A stretch of DNA of 64,000 nucleotides, from contig CAMKGA010000006.1 of assembly GCA_946412015.1 (NCBI GenBank), positions 1-64,000 of the forward strand, given 5' to 3'. The notes under the pieces were generated by a model. It was not told the origin of the DNA, did no database searches, and worked only from the letters and a program-made list of their open reading frames with translations. Made by a program: the position numbers and the translations under genes. The stretch's first letter is position 1; each line of letters opens with the position of its first letter. Of this stretch, positions 249-39,953 are shown one piece after another. The stretch comes from an uncultured Caryophanales bacterium (GTDB lineage: Bacteria > Bacillota_I > Bacilli_A > RF39 > UBA660).

Positions 249-322
249 GCCCTTTTAGTTAAGTGGTATAACAAAGCCATGGTAAGGCTTAGTCATAAGT
301 TCGATTCTTATAAAGGGCACCA
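249..322 (+). tRNA. tRNA-Thr (anticodon GGT), CCA encoded
   Basis: acceptor GCCCTTT/AAAGGGC, anticodon stem AAGCC/GGCTT with loop ATGGTAA, T-loop TTCGATT, terminal CCA. Confidence 0.92.
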
Positions 323-356
323 GATTAATAGGAAACTCGAACTTTTCGGGTATAAT

Positions 357-386
357 AAAAAAGCGGCTTGCAAAAAAGTCGTTTTT
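357..386 (+). terminator. intrinsic terminator downstream of the tRNA pair
   Basis: AAAAGCGGCTT...AAGTCGTTTTT hairpin with U-run. Confidence 0.6.
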
Positions 387-430
387 ATGTTATTATGAAT
401 ATGTCAGAGAAATTTGCATACAATAAAAAA

Positions 431-519
431 GGAAATATACAGCTTTGGCGAGTTGAATGTCTACCTAAATAAATTTAAGCGAGACACTTATTCAAATGCG
501 AATGAGTGTCATTTTTTTA
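431..519 (+). ncRNA. candidate small RNA ending in an intrinsic terminator, convergent to a small peptide mRNA
   Basis: -10-like TACAAT at 419-424, then GGAAATAT; terminator stem GACACTTATTC/GAATGAGTGTC (483-510) followed by ATTTTTTTA. Confidence 0.4.
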
Positions 520-601
520 TTACAATAATCATTATGATTAGGAGTAACAAAATGATAGAAAGATATCTAAGAACTCTTATAACAAAAATTCTCTTCTTCA
601 T
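509..601 (-). CDS. 30-aa hydrophobic single-TM peptide MKKRIFVIRVLRYLSIILLLLIIMIIVIKK (candidate type I toxin-like)
   Basis: ATG with upstream AGGAGG, consensus promoter TTGTAT-17-TATAAT at 690-695/667-672; basic ends and hydrophobic core. Confidence 0.5.
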   Translation of the reverse strand: MKKRIFVIRVLRYLSIILLLLIIMIIVIKK

Positions 602-853
602 TTTTATCAAACCTCCTCTCTTTATGAGATTTGGTAGACACTCAACAACTGATATTTCCTATGAAAATTATACTAAATATTTTAATATAATACAATGAGT
701 TTGACTAAATTTTGACTATTTAGAAACACACTTGCAAATTGACATAATCAATTTGTAATTTTTAAATAAATAATATTTTATTTTTTTAAATTTTATGTTA
801 AGATAGTTTTGTAATAAAATTAAACCATTCAGTTATTTGGACTGGGCCCTAGG

Positions 854-885
854 GATAGGTATGATCTAATCATATCTATCTTTTT
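854..885 (+). terminator. intrinsic terminator in the leader of the exonuclease gene (possible attenuator)
   Basis: 12-bp stem GATAGGTATGAT/ATCATATCTATC, CTA loop, TTTTT; about 20 nt before the ATG at 906. Confidence 0.7.
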
Positions 886-905
886 GTTTAAAGGAGGAAT
901 TATTT

Positions 906-1739
906 ATGAATAAAATTATTTTGATAGATGGACATAATTTATTATTTAGAATGTTTTATGGAATACCATCACCTATAAAAAATACTAAAGGAAAAGAAAT
1001 TAGAGGGTTAATTGGATTTATTGGTAGTTTGAAAAAAATAGTTGATGAATTTCGACCATATTTATTAATTGTGGTTTTTGATAGTCAAACCAGTAAAGAT
1101 AGTAACTTAAAAATTGATATAAATTATAAACGAAATAGAGTCGATTATACAAATATATCAGAAGATGATAATCCCTTTTCGCAACTTCCCTTAATAAAGA
1201 AAGCTTTAGAATATTTAAACATTTATTATTTAGAAGTTGAAAATTATGAAGCCGATGATTACATAGCTTCTATAATAAACAATAATAGAGAAAATCAATA
1301 TATAATAGTATCAACAGATTCTGATTTTATACAATTAGTAGATAATAATATATTTCTATATGTTCCTAGAGGTAAAAAAAGCGTATTATATACTCCAGAA
1401 GAAGTTGTAAAAAAATATAATATACCACCCACAAAATATGTAATATTTAAATCATTAGTTGGCGATAAAAGTGATAATATTAAAGGAGTAAAAGGAATAG
1501 GAAATATTATTGCTGCAAAGATACTAAATTATAGTTCAATACAAAATTATATATTTAATAATCCTGATTCTAGATTTGTAAAACTTCTTATTGATAATGA
1601 AGAGATAATTTTAAAAAATCAAAAATTAATATGTATGAGTAATAATATAGATACTTCTAAAATTACTTTTAAAAAATTATCTAACAATATTTCTACTTTT
1701 AAAACCTATGAAATAATTGAAAAAATTGGAGAAAGATAA
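906..1739 (+). CDS. stand-alone 5'-3' exonuclease (PolA N-terminal / FEN-like)
   Basis: IDGHNLLFR, NYEADDYIA, STDSDFIQLV, VGDKSDNIKGVKGIG motifs; RBS AAAGGAGG. Confidence 0.9.
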   Translation: MNKIILIDGHNLLFRMFYGIPSPIKNTKGKEIRGLIGFIGSLKKIVDEFRPYLLIVVFDSQTSKDSNLKIDINYKRNRVDYTNISEDDNPFSQLPLIKKALEYLNIYYLEVENYEADDYIASIINNNRENQYIIVSTDSDFIQLVDNNIFLYVPRGKKSVLYTPEEVVKKYNIPPTKYVIFKSLVGDKSDNIKGVKGIGNIIAAKILNYSSIQNYIFNNPDSRFVKLLIDNEEIILKNQKLICMSNNIDTSKITFKKLSNNISTFKTYEIIEKIGER

Positions 1740-33911: not shown

Positions 33912-34604
33912 TTATTTATATTTTTTTGCACATATTAATATATATGTATTTTCAGGATGATAATTACAAGTTTGTATCACAACAATTCTATCATCAAAAC
34001 TAACATCGACCCCTGTATCATATATTGAATTACTCTTTAAATAATTTAAATGTTCTAACCAAGAATTATCATCAAATTCAAGCTTCATATGAGTATTATT
34101 TCCTTTTTTTACAATCATAACTGAAAAAATTAACCATTTAGTATCTTCATTAAACTTTAAATCTACATATTTATTTTCTCTATAAAATGATTCATCTAAA
34201 TATTTTTCTAAATCATGAAATGGTACCGTATCTAATTTCCTAGCATTATGTCCAAATATAAGAATTTTTTTATCATCAACACTATTCCTATAATCCATAA
34301 ACACTGCTCCAGCAATATCGTATTCTTTCTTTAAATTATGATTTAAATAATAATTATTGTCAGTTGTTTTAACTATATATTCATCTATATCAGTTCCAGA
34401 TACTGTTATATTACCAATAATATCATCATTACCATACGAATCTTTGGCATTTGTAATATCGTCTTTAGAATTCTCAATTGTTTTATTAATTATTTTTTTT
34501 ACTTTTTTATTATCTAATTTTTTATTATTTAAATTAAACAGGAACAATGTAGATAAAGTTATTAAAAAACAAGCAATTATTACAACAAATATATTTTTTT
34601 TCAT
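33912..34604 (-). CDS. sortase, class B-like
   Basis: GHNARKLDTVPFHDLEKYLDESFY, VVIQTCNYHPENTYILICAKK. Confidence 0.85.
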   Translation of the reverse strand: MKKNIFVVIIACFLITLSTLFLFNLNNKKLDNKKVKKIINKTIENSKDDITNAKDSYGNDDIIGNITVSGTDIDEYIVKTTDNNYYLNHNLKKEYDIAGAVFMDYRNSVDDKKILIFGHNARKLDTVPFHDLEKYLDESFYRENKYVDLKFNEDTKWLIFSVMIVKKGNNTHMKLEFDDNSWLEHLNYLKSNSIYDTGVDVSFDDRIVVIQTCNYHPENTYILICAKKYK

Positions 34605-34685
34605 ATACTTCCCCCTTTTAATAACAAACATATAATATATAATTTTTTTTAATTTGTCAACAAAAAAAAGACTACCTAAGCAGTC

Positions 34686-37600
34686 TTAATTTTTTAATAT
34701 TTTTTTTGAAAACAATCCTAAAGATAGTATCATAAAAATCATTTTGATTATATATGTAATATCATTATTATTTGTGTCAACACCAGTATTAGGAGCTTCA
34801 ATTTCATATCCACTACCTTTACCTTCTATTACATTATGAGTATTAGTTATATCAAAACCATTAATCATTGTTTCATAATAAGCAACTGGGTGTTCCAAAA
34901 TAGTATATAAAATTTCAGTTCCGTTTGCATATTTATCTAAATCTTTAATTTGATATTGCCAATTATCATTTTCGTTTATAATAATTGTATCAAATAAAAT
35001 ACCATCTTTAAATAGATCTACTGTAATTTCTATTGGTCTTAATCCATCATAATTATCTTTATCATCCCAAGTTTTATTAATTGTAATATCAATTTTTTCT
35101 GGAGTATGTGTATTTGTGATAGTTGATGAAACAATATTATTTTCATCTATTTCATCATAATTTATTTCAGTACTATAACCATCAACTTCTTCTTCAACAA
35201 TTTTATAACTTATCTCTACTCCATTAGCATATCTATCTAACTCATCAAATGAATAAGTCCAATTATTTTCAGCACTGATTACTGCAGTTTTAAATACTTC
35301 ATCATTTTTATAAAGATATACTGTTATACTTTCTGGTCTAATTCCATCCTGGTTATCTTTATCATCCCATACTTTTGTCGCTTTAAATGTAATTTTTTCT
35401 GGAACGTGAGTATTAGTTACATCATAACCTGTTACTTCTTTTTCATATCCATCAACAGTATCTTCTGTAATTGTATAATTAATCTCTTTTCCTTCTGCAT
35501 ACTTATCTAATTCATCAAAGCTATATGTCCAACCATTTACTGCAGTTACATCTTTTTTTGCAACTTCAGTTCCATTTGCATATAATCTTACTGTTATACT
35601 TTCTGGTCTTTTTCCATCTTGGTTATCATTATCATCCCAAATTTTTGTACCAGATACACTTATTTTCTCTGCTTCATGCGTATTTGTAATATCATATCCA
35701 TTTATTTCTGTTGAATAACCATCTACAGCATCTTCTGTAATTGTATAATTAATCTCTTTTCCTTCTGCATACTTATCTAATTCATCAAAGCTATATGTCC
35801 AACCATTTACTGCAGTTACATCTTTTTTTGCAACTTCAGTTCCATTTGCATATAATCTTACTGTTATACTTTCTGGTCTTTTTCCATCTTGGTTATCATT
35901 ATCATCCCAAATTTTTGTACCAGATACACTTGTTTTAGAAGTTTCATGGGTATTTATAATAGTATTATTATCACCATAAGTAGTTGTATATCCATCTACA
36001 CTTTCTTCCTTAACAGTATATTCAATTTCTGTTCCATTATTATATTTTGGCAAATCAGTAAATGCAAATGCCCAATTCTTATTTTCACCTTCAGTAATTA
36101 CACCTTCAGTAACGTAAGCACCATCTGCATATAACTTAACTATAATACTTGCTGGTCTTACCCCATCTTGATTATTAGCATCTTGCCATACTTTTCTACC
36201 TGTTACATTTGTTTTTTCTGGACTATGAGTATTTGTTACTTTAAATCCTTCACTTACACTTCCTGTAATTGCTTTTTCATATCCTGCAATTTCTTTTTCA
36301 TCTACAGTATATTCTATTTCTGTTCCATTATTATATTTAGCTAAATTTTCAAATGTATATTTCCATTCATTTGCATCATTTAATGTTACTTTCTCTTTAA
36401 CATTTCCATCTGCATATAATGTTATTTCTACATCTTTTCTAAGCCCATCTTGGTTATTATTATCATCCCAAGTTTTTTCTACATTTAACTTACCTGTATT
36501 ATCATTAATTAATTCAGGTGTGTGTGTATTTGTTACTTTAAATCCTTCACTTACACTTCCTGTAATTGCTTTTTCATATCCTGCAATTTCTTTTTCATCT
36601 ACAGTATATTCTATTTCTGTTCCATTATTATATTTAGCTAAATTTTCAAATGTATATTTCCATTCATTTGCATCATTTAATGTTACTTTCTCTTTAACAT
36701 TTCCATCTGCATATAATGTTATTTCTACATCTTTTCTAAGCCCATCTTGGTTATTATTATCATCCCAAGTTTTTTCTACATTTAACTTACCTGTATTATC
36801 ATTAATTAATTCAGGTGTGTGTGTATTTGTTACTTTAAATCCTTCACTTACACTTCCTGTAATTGCTTTTTCATATCCTGCAATTTCTTTTTCATCTACA
36901 GTATATTCTATTTCTGTTCCATTATTATATTTAGCTAAATTTTCAAATGTATATTTCCATTCATTTGCATCATTTAATGTTACTTTCTCTTTAACATTTC
37001 CATCTGCATATAATGTTATTTCTACATCTTTTCTAAGCCCATCTTGGTTATTATTATCATCCCAAGTTTTTTCTACATTTAACTTACCTGTATTATCATT
37101 AATTAATTCAGGTGTGTGTGTATTTGTTACTTTAAATCCTTCACTTACACTTCCTGTAATTGCTTTTTCATATCCTGCAATTTCTTTTTCATCTACAGTA
37201 TATTCTATTTCTGTTCCATTATTATATTTAGCTAAATTTTCAAATGTATATTTCCATTCATTTGCATCATTTAATGTTACTTTCTCTTTAACATTTCCAT
37301 CTGCATATAATGTTATTTCTACATCTTTTCTAAGCCCATCTTGGTTATTATTATCATCCCAAGTTTTTTCTACATTTAACTTACCTGTATTATCATTAAT
37401 TAATTCAGGTGTGTGTGTATTTGTTACTTTAAATCCTTCACTTACACTTCCTGTAATTGCTTTTTCATATCCTGCAATTTCTTTTTCATCTACAGTATAT
37501 TCTATTTCTGTTCCATTATTATATTTAGCTAAATTTTCAAATGTATATTTCCATTCATTTGCATCATTTAATGTTACTTTCTCTTTAACATTTCCATCTG

Positions 37601-39953
37601 CATATAATGTTATTTCTACATCTTTTCTAAGCCCATCTTGGTTATTATTATCATCCCAAGTTTTTTCTACATTTAATTTACCTGTATTATCATTAATTAA
37701 TTCAGGTGTGTGTGTATTTGTAATATTATTACCTGAGATTACCGTTTCATAACCTGTAACTTGCTCTTCTTTTACTTGATATTTAATTTCATTACCGTTT
37801 TCATATTTTGGCAAATTATCAAAACTATATGACCATCCATCATCTTCAGTTACATCTTTTTCTGCAACTAAATTTGATCCATTAAATACCCTTACTTTAA
37901 TGCTTGCAGGTCTAATTCCATCTTGGTTATTATTATCATCCCAAGTTTTTTTGCCACTAACAACAGTTACTTTTGGAATATGTTTATTTATTATATTGCT
38001 TCCATCATAAGTTGTAACATAACCATCAACTGTTGATACTTCTTTAACTTCATAGTTTATTAAATATTTTTCATCATTTTCATGACCTACTTGATATTTA
38101 TATAGATCATCAAAACTATATGTCCAATCAGTGCTTGTTAATGTTTTTCTAGCAACTATTACTCCATTAGCATTAAGTGTAATATTGATATTTGTAGGTC
38201 TTAATCCGTCTTGGTTATTAGCATCATCCCATACTTTTTCACCAGATACATTAACTTTTGAACGACTTAATACATTTAATGTAACTTTAGCTTCTGCACT
38301 TACGACTTTACCAGTTTCTACACTAGGGTTTAAAGTTGTTTCAACGTAATATAAAAATTCAACCTCTCCACTTACATTTTCTTCTGAAACAAAAGTAAAT
38401 GTTCCATTGTCATTCATTACTAAAGTTCCTTGCTTTACACCATCTTTTGAAATTTCATATTTATCTTCACTTATTTTCTTTGTATCATCAGTTTCAACAA
38501 TAATAACTTTATCTGATACTCTAACATTTTCATCAGTCTTTAAATTTTCATTTAAATCATTATCTAATACACTTTCTCCGTTTATGGTAGACTCTGCATA
38601 ACCAACATAACTTGTTTTTTCACTATAATGATCATCTTTTGTAATCATTGGAATTGCAACATTTGGTTTTTCAAATTCTAAAGTAATAGTTTTATTTTCT
38701 TCATCCTTATAATATGGATTATTATCATCTACAGTAGTTGTTAAACTAGCATTTTGGTTTGTATAAATACTACCATAATAATTATCGTCTGCTTTTACTT
38801 CATATGTAATTTTGTAATCAGTGTTAGCATTTACATTACCAATATTCCAGGTAAGTGTTGTTGTACCATCTTCATTTTCTACAACATCAATACCCTGTTC
38901 TGTTAGCTTAATTTTAGCACCATCAGTTAATTTAAATTCTTTAGGAATTATATCTGTTACAACACTATCTTTACCTATTAATTCAACTAAACTATCACTA
39001 ATTCCCTTGAATTTTTCTTTTAATTGTTCACCAGTTAATGCAGCATAATTAGCATAAACAGGTGTTGCAACTTGGGCTGAAGCTGGATTTATTTCTGATA
39101 AAGAATTTCCTGATTCTTTACCAAATGCGATTGTATAAACATCGGCATCACTATAAGTACTCTTCAAAGAATCTAATTCCGATTTTGCAGCCTCCGATGG
39201 TTTAACCCATCTATAATCAGTACATCTATCATTTTTATTTTTAGCATAGCAAACTTGCACAGAATTATTATTATAACCATTACCAGCTTGAGCAGTTCCA
39301 GTAACTTGCTCTCCCTTCTTATTATAATATGTATATGTATAATTAAAATATGTTGGCTCTCCATCGGTAAGTACTATAACTACTTTTTTAGCATCAGTTC
39401 TACCTCCAGACAAAATATCATTTGCTTTTGCAATTCCTGCTTGAACATTAGTTCCTTGATTATATATAGAACTAATACCACTTATAAAATCATTAATTGT
39501 TGTTTTATTGCTTGATAGTTCTTGTGAAGATTGTATGTCTGTCCCAAAAACAACAATTCCAATCTTAACATTATCTTTTCCTTCGTTGATTAAATTATCA
39601 ACAAAATCACTAGCCGCATCTTTTGCTGCTTTTCTACGAGCTAGATTGTTTTGTTCATTAGCATCTTTATTATCCATACTAGACGAATTATCTATAACTA
39701 AAACAATATCTAACTTATTCTTAGCATCAAGATTATAAGAATTTGCATTAACATCTAGTGTTACTTGTGCAAGTCTTCCTTCCTCTAGATTATCTTCACT
39801 AACGCCATCATATACTTTAGTAGCATTTTTCTCAAGACTAATCTTACCAGCTTCATCTTTTGCATTAGTCATCAAAAATGTACCACCAACTATAATAGAC
39901 GCTACTAACATAAATATATAGATAAATTTATGCCTCTTTAATAAATCAATCAT
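34686..39953 (-). CDS. sortase-anchored surface protein: vWA domain plus about 12 Cna-B repeats, APNTG sorting motif
   Basis: signal peptide, VLVIDNSSSMDN MIDAS, repeated W.D..NQDG.RP...TNTH Cna-B units, EAPNTG plus hydrophobic tail plus KK. Confidence 0.93.
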   Translation of the reverse strand: MIDLLKRHKFIYIFMLVASIIVGGTFLMTNAKDEAGKISLEKNATKVYDGVSEDNLEEGRLAQVTLDVNANSYNLDAKNKLDIVLVIDNSSSMDNKDANEQNNLARRKAAKDAASDFVDNLINEGKDNVKIGIVVFGTDIQSSQELSSNKTTINDFISGISSIYNQGTNVQAGIAKANDILSGGRTDAKKVVIVLTDGEPTYFNYTYTYYNKKGEQVTGTAQAGNGYNNNSVQVCYAKNKNDRCTDYRWVKPSEAAKSELDSLKSTYSDADVYTIAFGKESGNSLSEINPASAQVATPVYANYAALTGEQLKEKFKGISDSLVELIGKDSVVTDIIPKEFKLTDGAKIKLTEQGIDVVENEDGTTTLTWNIGNVNANTDYKITYEVKADDNYYGSIYTNQNASLTTTVDDNNPYYKDEENKTITLEFEKPNVAIPMITKDDHYSEKTSYVGYAESTINGESVLDNDLNENLKTDENVRVSDKVIIVETDDTKKISEDKYEISKDGVKQGTLVMNDNGTFTFVSEENVSGEVEFLYYVETTLNPSVETGKVVSAEAKVTLNVLSRSKVNVSGEKVWDDANNQDGLRPTNINITLNANGVIVARKTLTSTDWTYSFDDLYKYQVGHENDEKYLINYEVKEVSTVDGYVTTYDGSNIINKHIPKVTVVSGKKTWDDNNNQDGIRPASIKVRVFNGSNLVAEKDVTEDDGWSYSFDNLPKYENGNEIKYQVKEEQVTGYETVISGNNITNTHTPELINDNTGKLNVEKTWDDNNNQDGLRKDVEITLYADGNVKEKVTLNDANEWKYTFENLAKYNNGTEIEYTVDEKEIAGYEKAITGSVSEGFKVTNTHTPELINDNTGKLNVEKTWDDNNNQDGLRKDVEITLYADGNVKEKVTLNDANEWKYTFENLAKYNNGTEIEYTVDEKEIAGYEKAITGSVSEGFKVTNTHTPELINDNTGKLNVEKTWDDNNNQDGLRKDVEITLYADGNVKEKVTLNDANEWKYTFENLAKYNNGTEIEYTVDEKEIAGYEKAITGSVSEGFKVTNTHTPELINDNTGKLNVEKTWDDNNNQDGLRKDVEITLYADGNVKEKVTLNDANEWKYTFENLAKYNNGTEIEYTVDEKEIAGYEKAITGSVSEGFKVTNTHTPELINDNTGKLNVEKTWDDNNNQDGLRKDVEITLYADGNVKEKVTLNDANEWKYTFENLAKYNNGTEIEYTVDEKEIAGYEKAITGSVSEGFKVTNTHSPEKTNVTGRKVWQDANNQDGVRPASIIVKLYADGAYVTEGVITEGENKNWAFAFTDLPKYNNGTEIEYTVKEESVDGYTTTYGDNNTIINTHETSKTSVSGTKIWDDNDNQDGKRPESITVRLYANGTEVAKKDVTAVNGWTYSFDELDKYAEGKEINYTITEDAVDGYSTEINGYDITNTHEAEKISVSGTKIWDDNDNQDGKRPESITVRLYANGTEVAKKDVTAVNGWTYSFDELDKYAEGKEINYTITEDTVDGYEKEVTGYDVTNTHVPEKITFKATKVWDDKDNQDGIRPESITVYLYKNDEVFKTAVISAENNWTYSFDELDRYANGVEISYKIVEEEVDGYSTEINYDEIDENNIVSSTITNTHTPEKIDITINKTWDDKDNYDGLRPIEITVDLFKDGILFDTIIINENDNWQYQIKDLDKYANGTEILYTILEHPVAYYETMINGFDITNTHNVIEGKGSGYEIEAPNTGVDTNNNDITYIIKMIFMILSLGLFSKKILKN
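36222..37706 (-). repeat. five near-identical 297-bp tandem Cna-B repeats
   Basis: CCT of PELINDNTG recurs at 36518, 36815, 37112, 37409, 37706 (period 297 bp). Confidence 0.97.

What the first reader, a model, noticed from the sequence alone, without database searches (positions are those of the whole stretch)
419..700. Candidate type I toxin-antitoxin-like locus: 30-aa hydrophobic peptide with a convergent terminator-ended small RNA
Seen: on the minus strand a consensus promoter (TTGTAT-17-TATAAT, 690-695/667-672), a roughly 60-nt leader, AGGAGG, then an ORF at 601-509 encoding MKKRIFVIRVLRYLSIILLLLIIMIIVIKK. Convergent on plus: TACAAT at 419-424, start region GGAAATAT at 431, intrinsic terminator 483-519 whose stem overlaps the peptide stop codon. 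Established knowledge: convergent 3'-overlapping toxin/antisense RNA pairs with small hydrophobic peptides (txpA/RatA, bsrG/SR4, par/Fst). Inference: this locus has the same layout with an unrelated peptide. The ORF track missed it because of ORF length.
Basis: partly seen in the sequence, partly recalled or inferred. Interest (0 to 1): 0.68.

Follow-up and report, generated by a model that had tools for sequence, protein, structure and literature searches.

The report
New family of RNA-controlled peptide toxins
A 300-base module in uncultured gut bacteria encodes a tiny membrane peptide that looks like a toxin, kept silent by an opposing small RNA and by its own messenger RNA closing end to end; it occurs in 1 to 18 copies per genome across one bacterial family and matches no curated family searched here.

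Summary
About 300 bp (window 368-695) is conserved in 131 of 193 genomes sampled from the host's family, in 1-18 copies each; 151 distinct full-length copies were aligned. The minus-strand peptide is under purifying selection: 148 of 151 frames are intact and median dN/dS is 0.39. The plus-strand RNA has a conserved promoter, two covarying hairpins and a terminator.

Two corrections matter. The antisense promoter is TTGCAA-17-TATTAT (368-396), so the RNA starts near 403; TACAAT at 419-424 is not it. The toxin mRNA has its own terminator (465-425), so it contains the complement of nearly all of the antisense RNA.

New finding: the toxin leader (660-633) pairs along its full length with the mRNA's 3' end (-34.8 kcal/mol). 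22 of 28 pairs show two-sided compensatory changes. The frame also hides a selected anti-Shine-Dalgarno (CUCC in 49 of 98 frames, 0.4 expected).

Best reading: a new type I toxin-antitoxin family, restricted almost entirely to one family of gut Bacilli. It uses AapA/hok-like end-to-end mRNA closure with a convergent antitoxin at the toxin's 3' end. It is not a member of Fst/Ldr. Transcription and toxicity are not shown.

The parts
667..695 (-). Toxin promoter: TTGTAT (695-690), 17-nt spacer, TATAAT (672-667); start inferred at 660-659
   Evidence: In 99 representatives TTG is 0.91-0.98 and the TATAAT positions 0.86-0.98 conserved
419..660 (-). Toxin mRNA, about 240 nt (inferred ends)
   Evidence: Conserved promoter at one end; at the other, a hairpin plus a T-run that is nearly invariant in copies
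633..660 (-). Toxin 5' leader arm AGGAAAUAUCAGUUGUUGAGUGUCUACC; pairs with the mRNA 3' end (430-465) in the full-length form, or (638-644) with hairpin H3 (503-509) in a 3'-shortened form
   Evidence: -34.8 kcal/mol duplex; matched copies -33.7 vs -26.8 permuted; 213 compensatory cells vs 58.6 shuffled
626..630 (-). Leader anti-SD (AUCUC), local hairpin with the Shine-Dalgarno region
   Evidence: Folding; alignment shows varied CU-rich stems here, but covariation on the window-derived pairs did not exceed shuffles, so moderate only
612..617 (-). Shine-Dalgarno AGGAGG
   Evidence: Positions 0.80-0.97 conserved
509..601 (-). 30-aa hydrophobic peptide (putative toxin) MKKRIFVIRVLRYLSIILLLLIIMIIVIKK
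   Evidence: 148 of 151 copies intact with ATG/GTG/TTG; median dN/dS 0.39; codon-position entropy 0.75/0.49/0.98
540..544 (-). In-frame anti-SD CUCCU (codons 20-21)
   Evidence: Codon 20 is CTC in 41 of 61 thirty-aa copies although CTC is 0.2% of Leu codons in the window's genes; CTCC in 49 of 98 frames vs 0.4 by synonymous recoding
483..510 (.). Hairpin H3: antisense terminator on +; inside the toxin 3' UTR on -
   Evidence: 122 compensatory cells vs 42 shuffled; 16 of 19 pairs of the antisense consensus covary
425..465 (-). Toxin transcript terminator: GGUAGACAUUCAAC...UAUUUCC then UUUUUU; also the 3' arm of the 5'-3' closure
   Evidence: Local hairpin covaries (29 vs 7.7 two-sided cells); T-run nearly invariant
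368..396 (+). Antisense promoter: TTGCAA (368-373), 17 nt, extended -10 TGTTATTAT (388-396)
   Evidence: TTG 0.93-1.0, TG 0.96-0.98, the -10 T/A/A/T anchor positions 0.95-1.0 conserved in 99 representatives
403..518 (+). Antisense RNA (putative antitoxin), about 115 nt: SL1 (405-416, GAAA tetraloop), SL2 (431-465), SL3/terminator (483-510)
   Evidence: Covariance model R1 finds it with 107 bits in the window and in 131 of 193 family genomes
359..386 (+). Terminator-like hairpin after tRNA-Thr whose loop holds the antisense -35
   Evidence: below -5 kcal/mol in 60 of 123 copies

Best explanation
This is a chromosomal type I toxin-antitoxin locus of a family not described in the sources searched. 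The minus strand makes a ~240-nt mRNA for a 30-aa single-helix membrane peptide, presumably toxic from inside. Its translation is held off in layers: CU-rich anti-SD sequences in the leader and in the frame cover the Shine-Dalgarno as the RNA emerges, then the finished mRNA closes on itself as its first 28 nt pair with its 3' terminal hairpin. The plus strand makes a ~115-nt structured antisense RNA that is complementary to the toxin 3' UTR. It probably pairs with the mRNA, most likely with a 3'-shortened and translatable form, and marks it for RNase III decay. Shown: the sequence elements, their conservation, the coding selection, the covariation. Inferred: that the RNAs are made, that 3' trimming activates the mRNA, that duplex decay occurs, and that the peptide is toxic.
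For: Family-wide multi-copy conservation. Frame intact in 148 of 151, dN/dS 0.39, alternative starts GTG/TTG kept. Both promoters conserved. 5'-3' closure: MFE, matched vs permuted energies, 22 of 28 pairs compensated and 213 cells vs shuffle maximum 87, still 84 vs maximum 45 in 39 representatives below 72% identity; predicted in 91 of 98 full-length RNAs. Alternative leader-H3 pairing covaries (65 vs 15). Synonymous-site signature of an in-frame anti-SD. Antisense consensus structure covaries. Three own-genome paralogues each pair best with their own partner. The 5'-3' closure, leader anti-SD and in-frame anti-SD are the elements shown experimentally to silence aapA3 mRNA (PMC6733600).
Against: No transcript, processing or toxicity data exist here. 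Folding predicts the Shine-Dalgarno to be mostly paired (unpaired probability 0.14-0.19) in full-length, shortened and nascent forms alike, so the activation step is not explained by these predictions. The leader anti-SD hairpin alone does not covary beyond shuffles. Related sequences inflate shuffle-based covariation tests.
Confidence: 0.85

Rival explanations
1. Not a toxin: a small regulatory membrane peptide (for example a modulator of a membrane enzyme) controlled by a cis antisense RNA.
For: Small single-helix membrane proteins are often regulators (general knowledge); no toxicity test was possible.
Against: 1-18 paralogues per genome in scattered positions, patchy presence (131 of 193 genomes), and several layers of translational silencing are typical of toxins and excessive for a regulator.
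Confidence: 0.1
2. [quoted passage not shown]
For: Convergent RNAs, 25-38-aa hydrophobic peptide, repeated motif at both RNA 5' ends.
Against: PXXXG in 1 of 98 peptides; no Fst model hit in Pfam or NCBIfam; the repeats are inverted, not direct; toxin and antisense do not share one bidirectional terminator.
Confidence: 0.02
3. A repeated DNA element (MITE- or REP-like) that happens to carry promoters and a short frame.
For: Many copies at scattered sites, many near contig ends, 25% within 100 nt of a tRNA gene against 6% for random positions.
Against: Selection on codons, on synonymous sites and on RNA pairing; the inverted repeats lie inside the conserved block, not at its ends.
Confidence: 0.05
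4. The two arms match because of gene conversion between inverted repeats, not because of RNA pairing.
For: Arms are similar in sequence within each copy.
Against: G-U pairs are tolerated (262) far more than A-C mismatches (99) on the toxin strand, and A-C is the more depleted of the two relative to shuffles; conversion would leave identical arms. H3, outside the arms, covaries too.
Confidence: 0.06

Closest known systems
aapA/IsoA (Helicobacter pylori, Campylobacterota)
   Same: 30-aa membrane peptide, several chromosomal copies with module-specific antitoxins, ~225-240-nt mRNA silenced by a 5'-3' long-distance interaction, anti-SD in the leader and CUCCU-type anti-SD in the frame (PMC6733600)
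   Different: Different phylum; IsoA3 forms an 80-bp duplex that masks the SD region and its promoter lies inside the toxin frame, whereas here the antisense starts beyond the mRNA's 3' end and covers only the 3' UTR; no detectable sequence relation
Fst/Ldr family (par of pAD1)
   Same: Convergent RNAs, repeat motif at both RNA 5' ends, SD-sequestering leader structure (PMC7472228)
   Different: Peptide lacks PXXXG; repeats inverted instead of direct, so leader and antisense have the same sequence rather than complementary ones; separate terminators
bsrG/SR4 and txpA/RatA (Bacillus subtilis)
   Same: Chromosomal, convergent, antitoxin complementary to the toxin mRNA's 3' end (bsrG/SR4: PMC8309996; txpA/RatA from general knowledge)
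   Different: Longer peptides (BsrG 38 aa), prophage-borne, no full-length 5'-3' closure known to me; no sequence relation found
hok/Sok
   Same: Inert full-length mRNA held by 5'-3' pairing, activated by 3' processing (as summarised in PMC6733600)
   Different: Unrelated larger toxin; Sok pairs with the leader, not with the 3' UTR (general knowledge)

Membership tests
Type I toxin-antitoxin (functional class) | Small hydrophobic peptide gene under selection | tested here: met
   148 of 151 frames intact, dN/dS 0.39; maximum 19-residue hydropathy mean 3.2
Type I toxin-antitoxin (functional class) | RNA antitoxin gene antisense to the toxin mRNA | tested here: met
   By sequence only: conserved promoter, covarying hairpins, terminator
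Type I toxin-antitoxin (functional class) | Toxin mRNA silenced by internal structure | tested here: met
   By covariation and codon use:
Type I toxin-antitoxin (functional class) | Peptide toxic, antisense RNA neutralises it | not testable with these tools
   Needs expression experiments
Fst/Ldr | PXXXG-type motif in the helix | tested here: not met
   P...G in 1 of 98 peptides; 4 have any proline
Fst/Ldr | Direct repeats DRa/DRb transcribed in both RNAs | tested here: not met
   The repeated motif is inverted (431-465 + and 633-659 -)
Fst/Ldr | Shared bidirectional terminator | tested here: not met
   H3 has a T-run only on +; the toxin strand ends at a different hairpin
Fst/Ldr | Sequence homology of the toxin | tested here: not met
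   No Pfam, NCBIfam or solved-structure hit
aapA/IsoA | 5'-3' long-distance interaction in the full-length mRNA | tested here: met
   (computational)
aapA/IsoA | Anti-SD in the coding frame | tested here: met
aapA/IsoA | Antitoxin duplex covers the SD and the start of the frame | tested here: not met
   The antisense (403-518) ends in the toxin 3' UTR, next to the stop codon
aapA/IsoA | Peptide homology to AapA | tested here: inconclusive
   No hit in solved-structure sequences or curated families, but 30-residue hydrophobic peptides are weakly searchable
Any Rfam RNA family | Covariance-model match | tested here: not met
   only the two tRNAs

The most novel reading that the evidence does not exclude
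The antitoxin works as a copy of the toxin's own leader. Because the arms are inverted repeats, the antisense RNA carries the same sequence as the toxin 5' leader and competes with it for the same 3' hairpin, so antitoxin binding opens the closed mRNA by strand displacement and at once commits it to decay. The arm sequence then serves as an 'address' that evolves in step in three places (leader, H3, 3' hairpin) and lets up to about 18 paralogues coexist without cross-talk.
Probability: 0.35. Interest if true: 0.75.

Novelty: new variant of a known kind. Interest (0 to 1): 0.64.

Why it matters
Type I systems are thought to be under-detected because searches start from known ones (PMC12390103). 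Here a reading of raw sequence led to a family found in 106 of 148 sampled genera of one group of uncultured gut Bacilli and absent from Pfam, NCBIfam, PHROGs and Rfam. It also shows end-to-end mRNA closure, an in-frame anti-SD and module-specific antitoxins arising outside the Campylobacterota and enterobacteria, with over 150 natural variants. That makes the 'inert full-length mRNA' mechanism directly testable by compensatory mutation.

Tried and rejected
- Riboswitch reading of the GGAAATAT...GTCTACC motif (it looked purine-riboswitch-like): no Rfam match even at E 5.
- Antisense promoter at 419-424: rejected by conservation.
- Mobile carriage: no match in 50,697 phage records, 72,556 plasmid records or IMG/VR.
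- Fst/Ldr membership: rejected on motif, repeat orientation and terminator.
- Activation by SD unmasking after 3' trimming: folding does not show it, so it is left as inference.
- Window-derived SD-hairpin pairs and SL1 pairs showed no covariation beyond shuffles on the MAFFT columns, although both hairpins are visible by eye in many copies.
- Synteny of the window copy could not be used: the neighbouring exonuclease gene has no close orthologue in relatives.
- Literature searches for this family in RF39, UBA660 or Erysipelotrichales gave nothing relevant. T1TAdb itself is not held, so a listing there cannot be excluded.

Full report
WHAT THE SEQUENCE SHOWS. On the minus strand: TTGTAT-17-TATAAT at 695-667, a 59-nt leader, AGGAGG at 617-612, and ATG at 601 opening the 30-aa frame MKKRIFVIRVLRYLSIILLLLIIMIIVIKK. 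On the plus strand: a hairpin at 483-510 followed by a T-run.

CONSERVATION. The 310-bp block matches relatives at up to E 1e-73 and 66-85% identity, often in several copies per genome. The peptide itself is found in 24 of 60 genomes. I fetched copies and an exact-pattern scan of genome contigs returned over 115 more stretches, nearly all from gut Bacilli/Tenericutes MAGs. In all, 220 profile hits gave 151 distinct full-length copies. A covariance model of the antisense RNA (R1) finds three copies in the window's own genome and matches in 131 of 193 genomes and 106 of 148 genera of the family, with 1 to 18 copies. Outside the family, samples of 395 class and 392 phylum genomes gave one isolated hit each (G363 of f5, where the copy fills a contig end; G675 of f19). 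These may be transfer or mis-binning. No phage, plasmid or IMG/VR match was found.

CODING. 148 of 151 copies keep the frame with ATG, GTG or TTG, 24-38 aa; median pairwise dN/dS is 0.39 and codon-position entropies are 0.75/0.49/0.98. Distinct peptide types exist: 30 aa (MKTKTF.../MKKRIF...), 27-29 aa (M.KKDFLI...) and 24-25 aa (M.KRE.SLF...). The own genome holds one 30-aa, one 28-aa and one 27-aa type. None matches Pfam, NCBIfam, PHROGs or solved structures.

PROMOTERS AND ENDS. Column profiles over 99 representatives below 85% identity confirm the toxin promoter and place the antisense promoter at 368-373/388-396 with an extended -10. In about half of 123 copies the antisense -35 lies in the loop of a hairpin that looks like the terminator of the upstream gene; in the window that gene is tRNA-Thr (249-322). 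On the toxin strand the hairpin 465-431 is followed by TTTTTT, nearly invariant in all copies, which I read as the toxin terminator.

RNA STRUCTURE. With that 3' end, the mRNA's first 28 nt pair completely with its last ~36 nt (-34.8 kcal/mol). Across copies, matched leader and 3' arm bind at -33.7 kcal/mol on average against -26.8 when permuted (lowest of 2,000 permutations -27.9). Twenty-two of 28 pairs show two-sided compensatory changes, 213 cells against a shuffle mean of 58.6 and maximum of 87; sliding the register by one or two columns drops paired cells from 86% to 39-50%. With only 39 representatives below 72% identity the excess remains (84 vs maximum 45). In 91 of 98 copies the partition function puts most leader pairing at the 3' end. 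A second, exclusive pairing of the leader with the 5' arm of hairpin H3 also covaries (65 vs 15 cells); it is the predicted fold when the 3' arm is removed. Hairpins SL2 and SL3 of the antisense covary in 16 of 19 pairs. G-U pairs outnumber A-C mismatches on the toxin strand for the closure (262:99) and for leader-H3 (65:16), and the reverse holds for H3 (24:85). Relative to shuffles the same direction holds but more weakly. This suggests that closure is selected in the mRNA and H3 in the antisense RNA.

ANTI-SD IN THE FRAME. Codon 20 is CTC in 41 of 61 thirty-aa copies although CTC is 0.2% of leucine codons in the window's genes; codons 16 and 22 are mostly ATC, a codon used for 2.9% of isoleucines. 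CTCC occurs in 49 of 98 frames, against 0.4 expected from synonymous recoding, and the SD-frame duplex is stronger than in any of 60 recoded sets. This is codon choice for RNA pairing, not for protein.

MECHANISM. The parts match the layered silencing shown for aapA3 in H. pylori: leader anti-SD, in-frame anti-SD, then 5'-3' closure; 3' trimming activates and the antisense duplex inactivates (PMC6733600). I infer the same logic here. The antisense, however, covers the toxin 3' UTR and so more resembles bsrG/SR4 in placement (PMC8309996). Because the arms are inverted repeats, the antisense carries the leader's sequence and could compete with it. In the own genome, leader/3'-arm energies are -35.6, -35.0 and -30.4 for cognate pairs and -14.8 to -19.2 for non-cognate ones, except C5 leader with C34 (-30.1).

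CONTEXT. Neighbour proteins fall into 245 clusters out of 373, so positions are scattered. A quarter of the copies lie within 100 nt of a tRNA gene (6% for random positions). Neighbours are mostly on the antisense strand (126:57 and 125:65; p about 4e-7 and 2e-5), so that read-through would make antitoxin rather than toxin.

LIMITS. No RNA or toxicity data. SD occlusion is predicted in all forms, so the activation step is unproven. The taxon is unnamed: records are labelled as uncultured Bacilli, Tenericutes, Candidatus Ventrenecus and Candidatus Scybalousia; RF39/UBA660 is my recollection, not a result. T1TAdb could not be consulted.

Noticed in passing
window 249-403; L077, L159, L147 and others: A quarter of copies lie within 100 nt of a tRNA gene, typically 50-82 nt downstream with the antisense on the tRNA's strand; random positions give 6%. 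Whether tRNA 3' ends are insertion sites is open.
   Followed up: partly
window 359-396: The antisense -35 sits in the loop of a terminator-like hairpin of the upstream gene and the T-run merges into the extended -10, a fused terminator-promoter present in about half of copies.
   Followed up: partly
window 836-905: A 15-bp terminator-like hairpin (851-883) stands between the likely start and the SD of the 906-1739 gene: possible leader attenuator; no Rfam match.
   Followed up: no
window 906-1739: Stand-alone 277-aa 5'-3' exonuclease resembling the N-terminal part of DNA polymerase I (34-40% identity to ~850-aa proteins in the family); relatives have only the full-length form.
   Followed up: partly
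window 34686-39953: 1755-aa surface protein with five near-identical tandem repeats (about 80 aa, Cna-B-like by eye) and a C-terminal sortase-type signal, next to a sortase-like gene (33912-34631).
   Followed up: no
L066 1448-1785: One copy has an extra inverted repeat (GATATGAACC...GGTTCATATC) inserted in the loop of hairpin H3.
   Followed up: no
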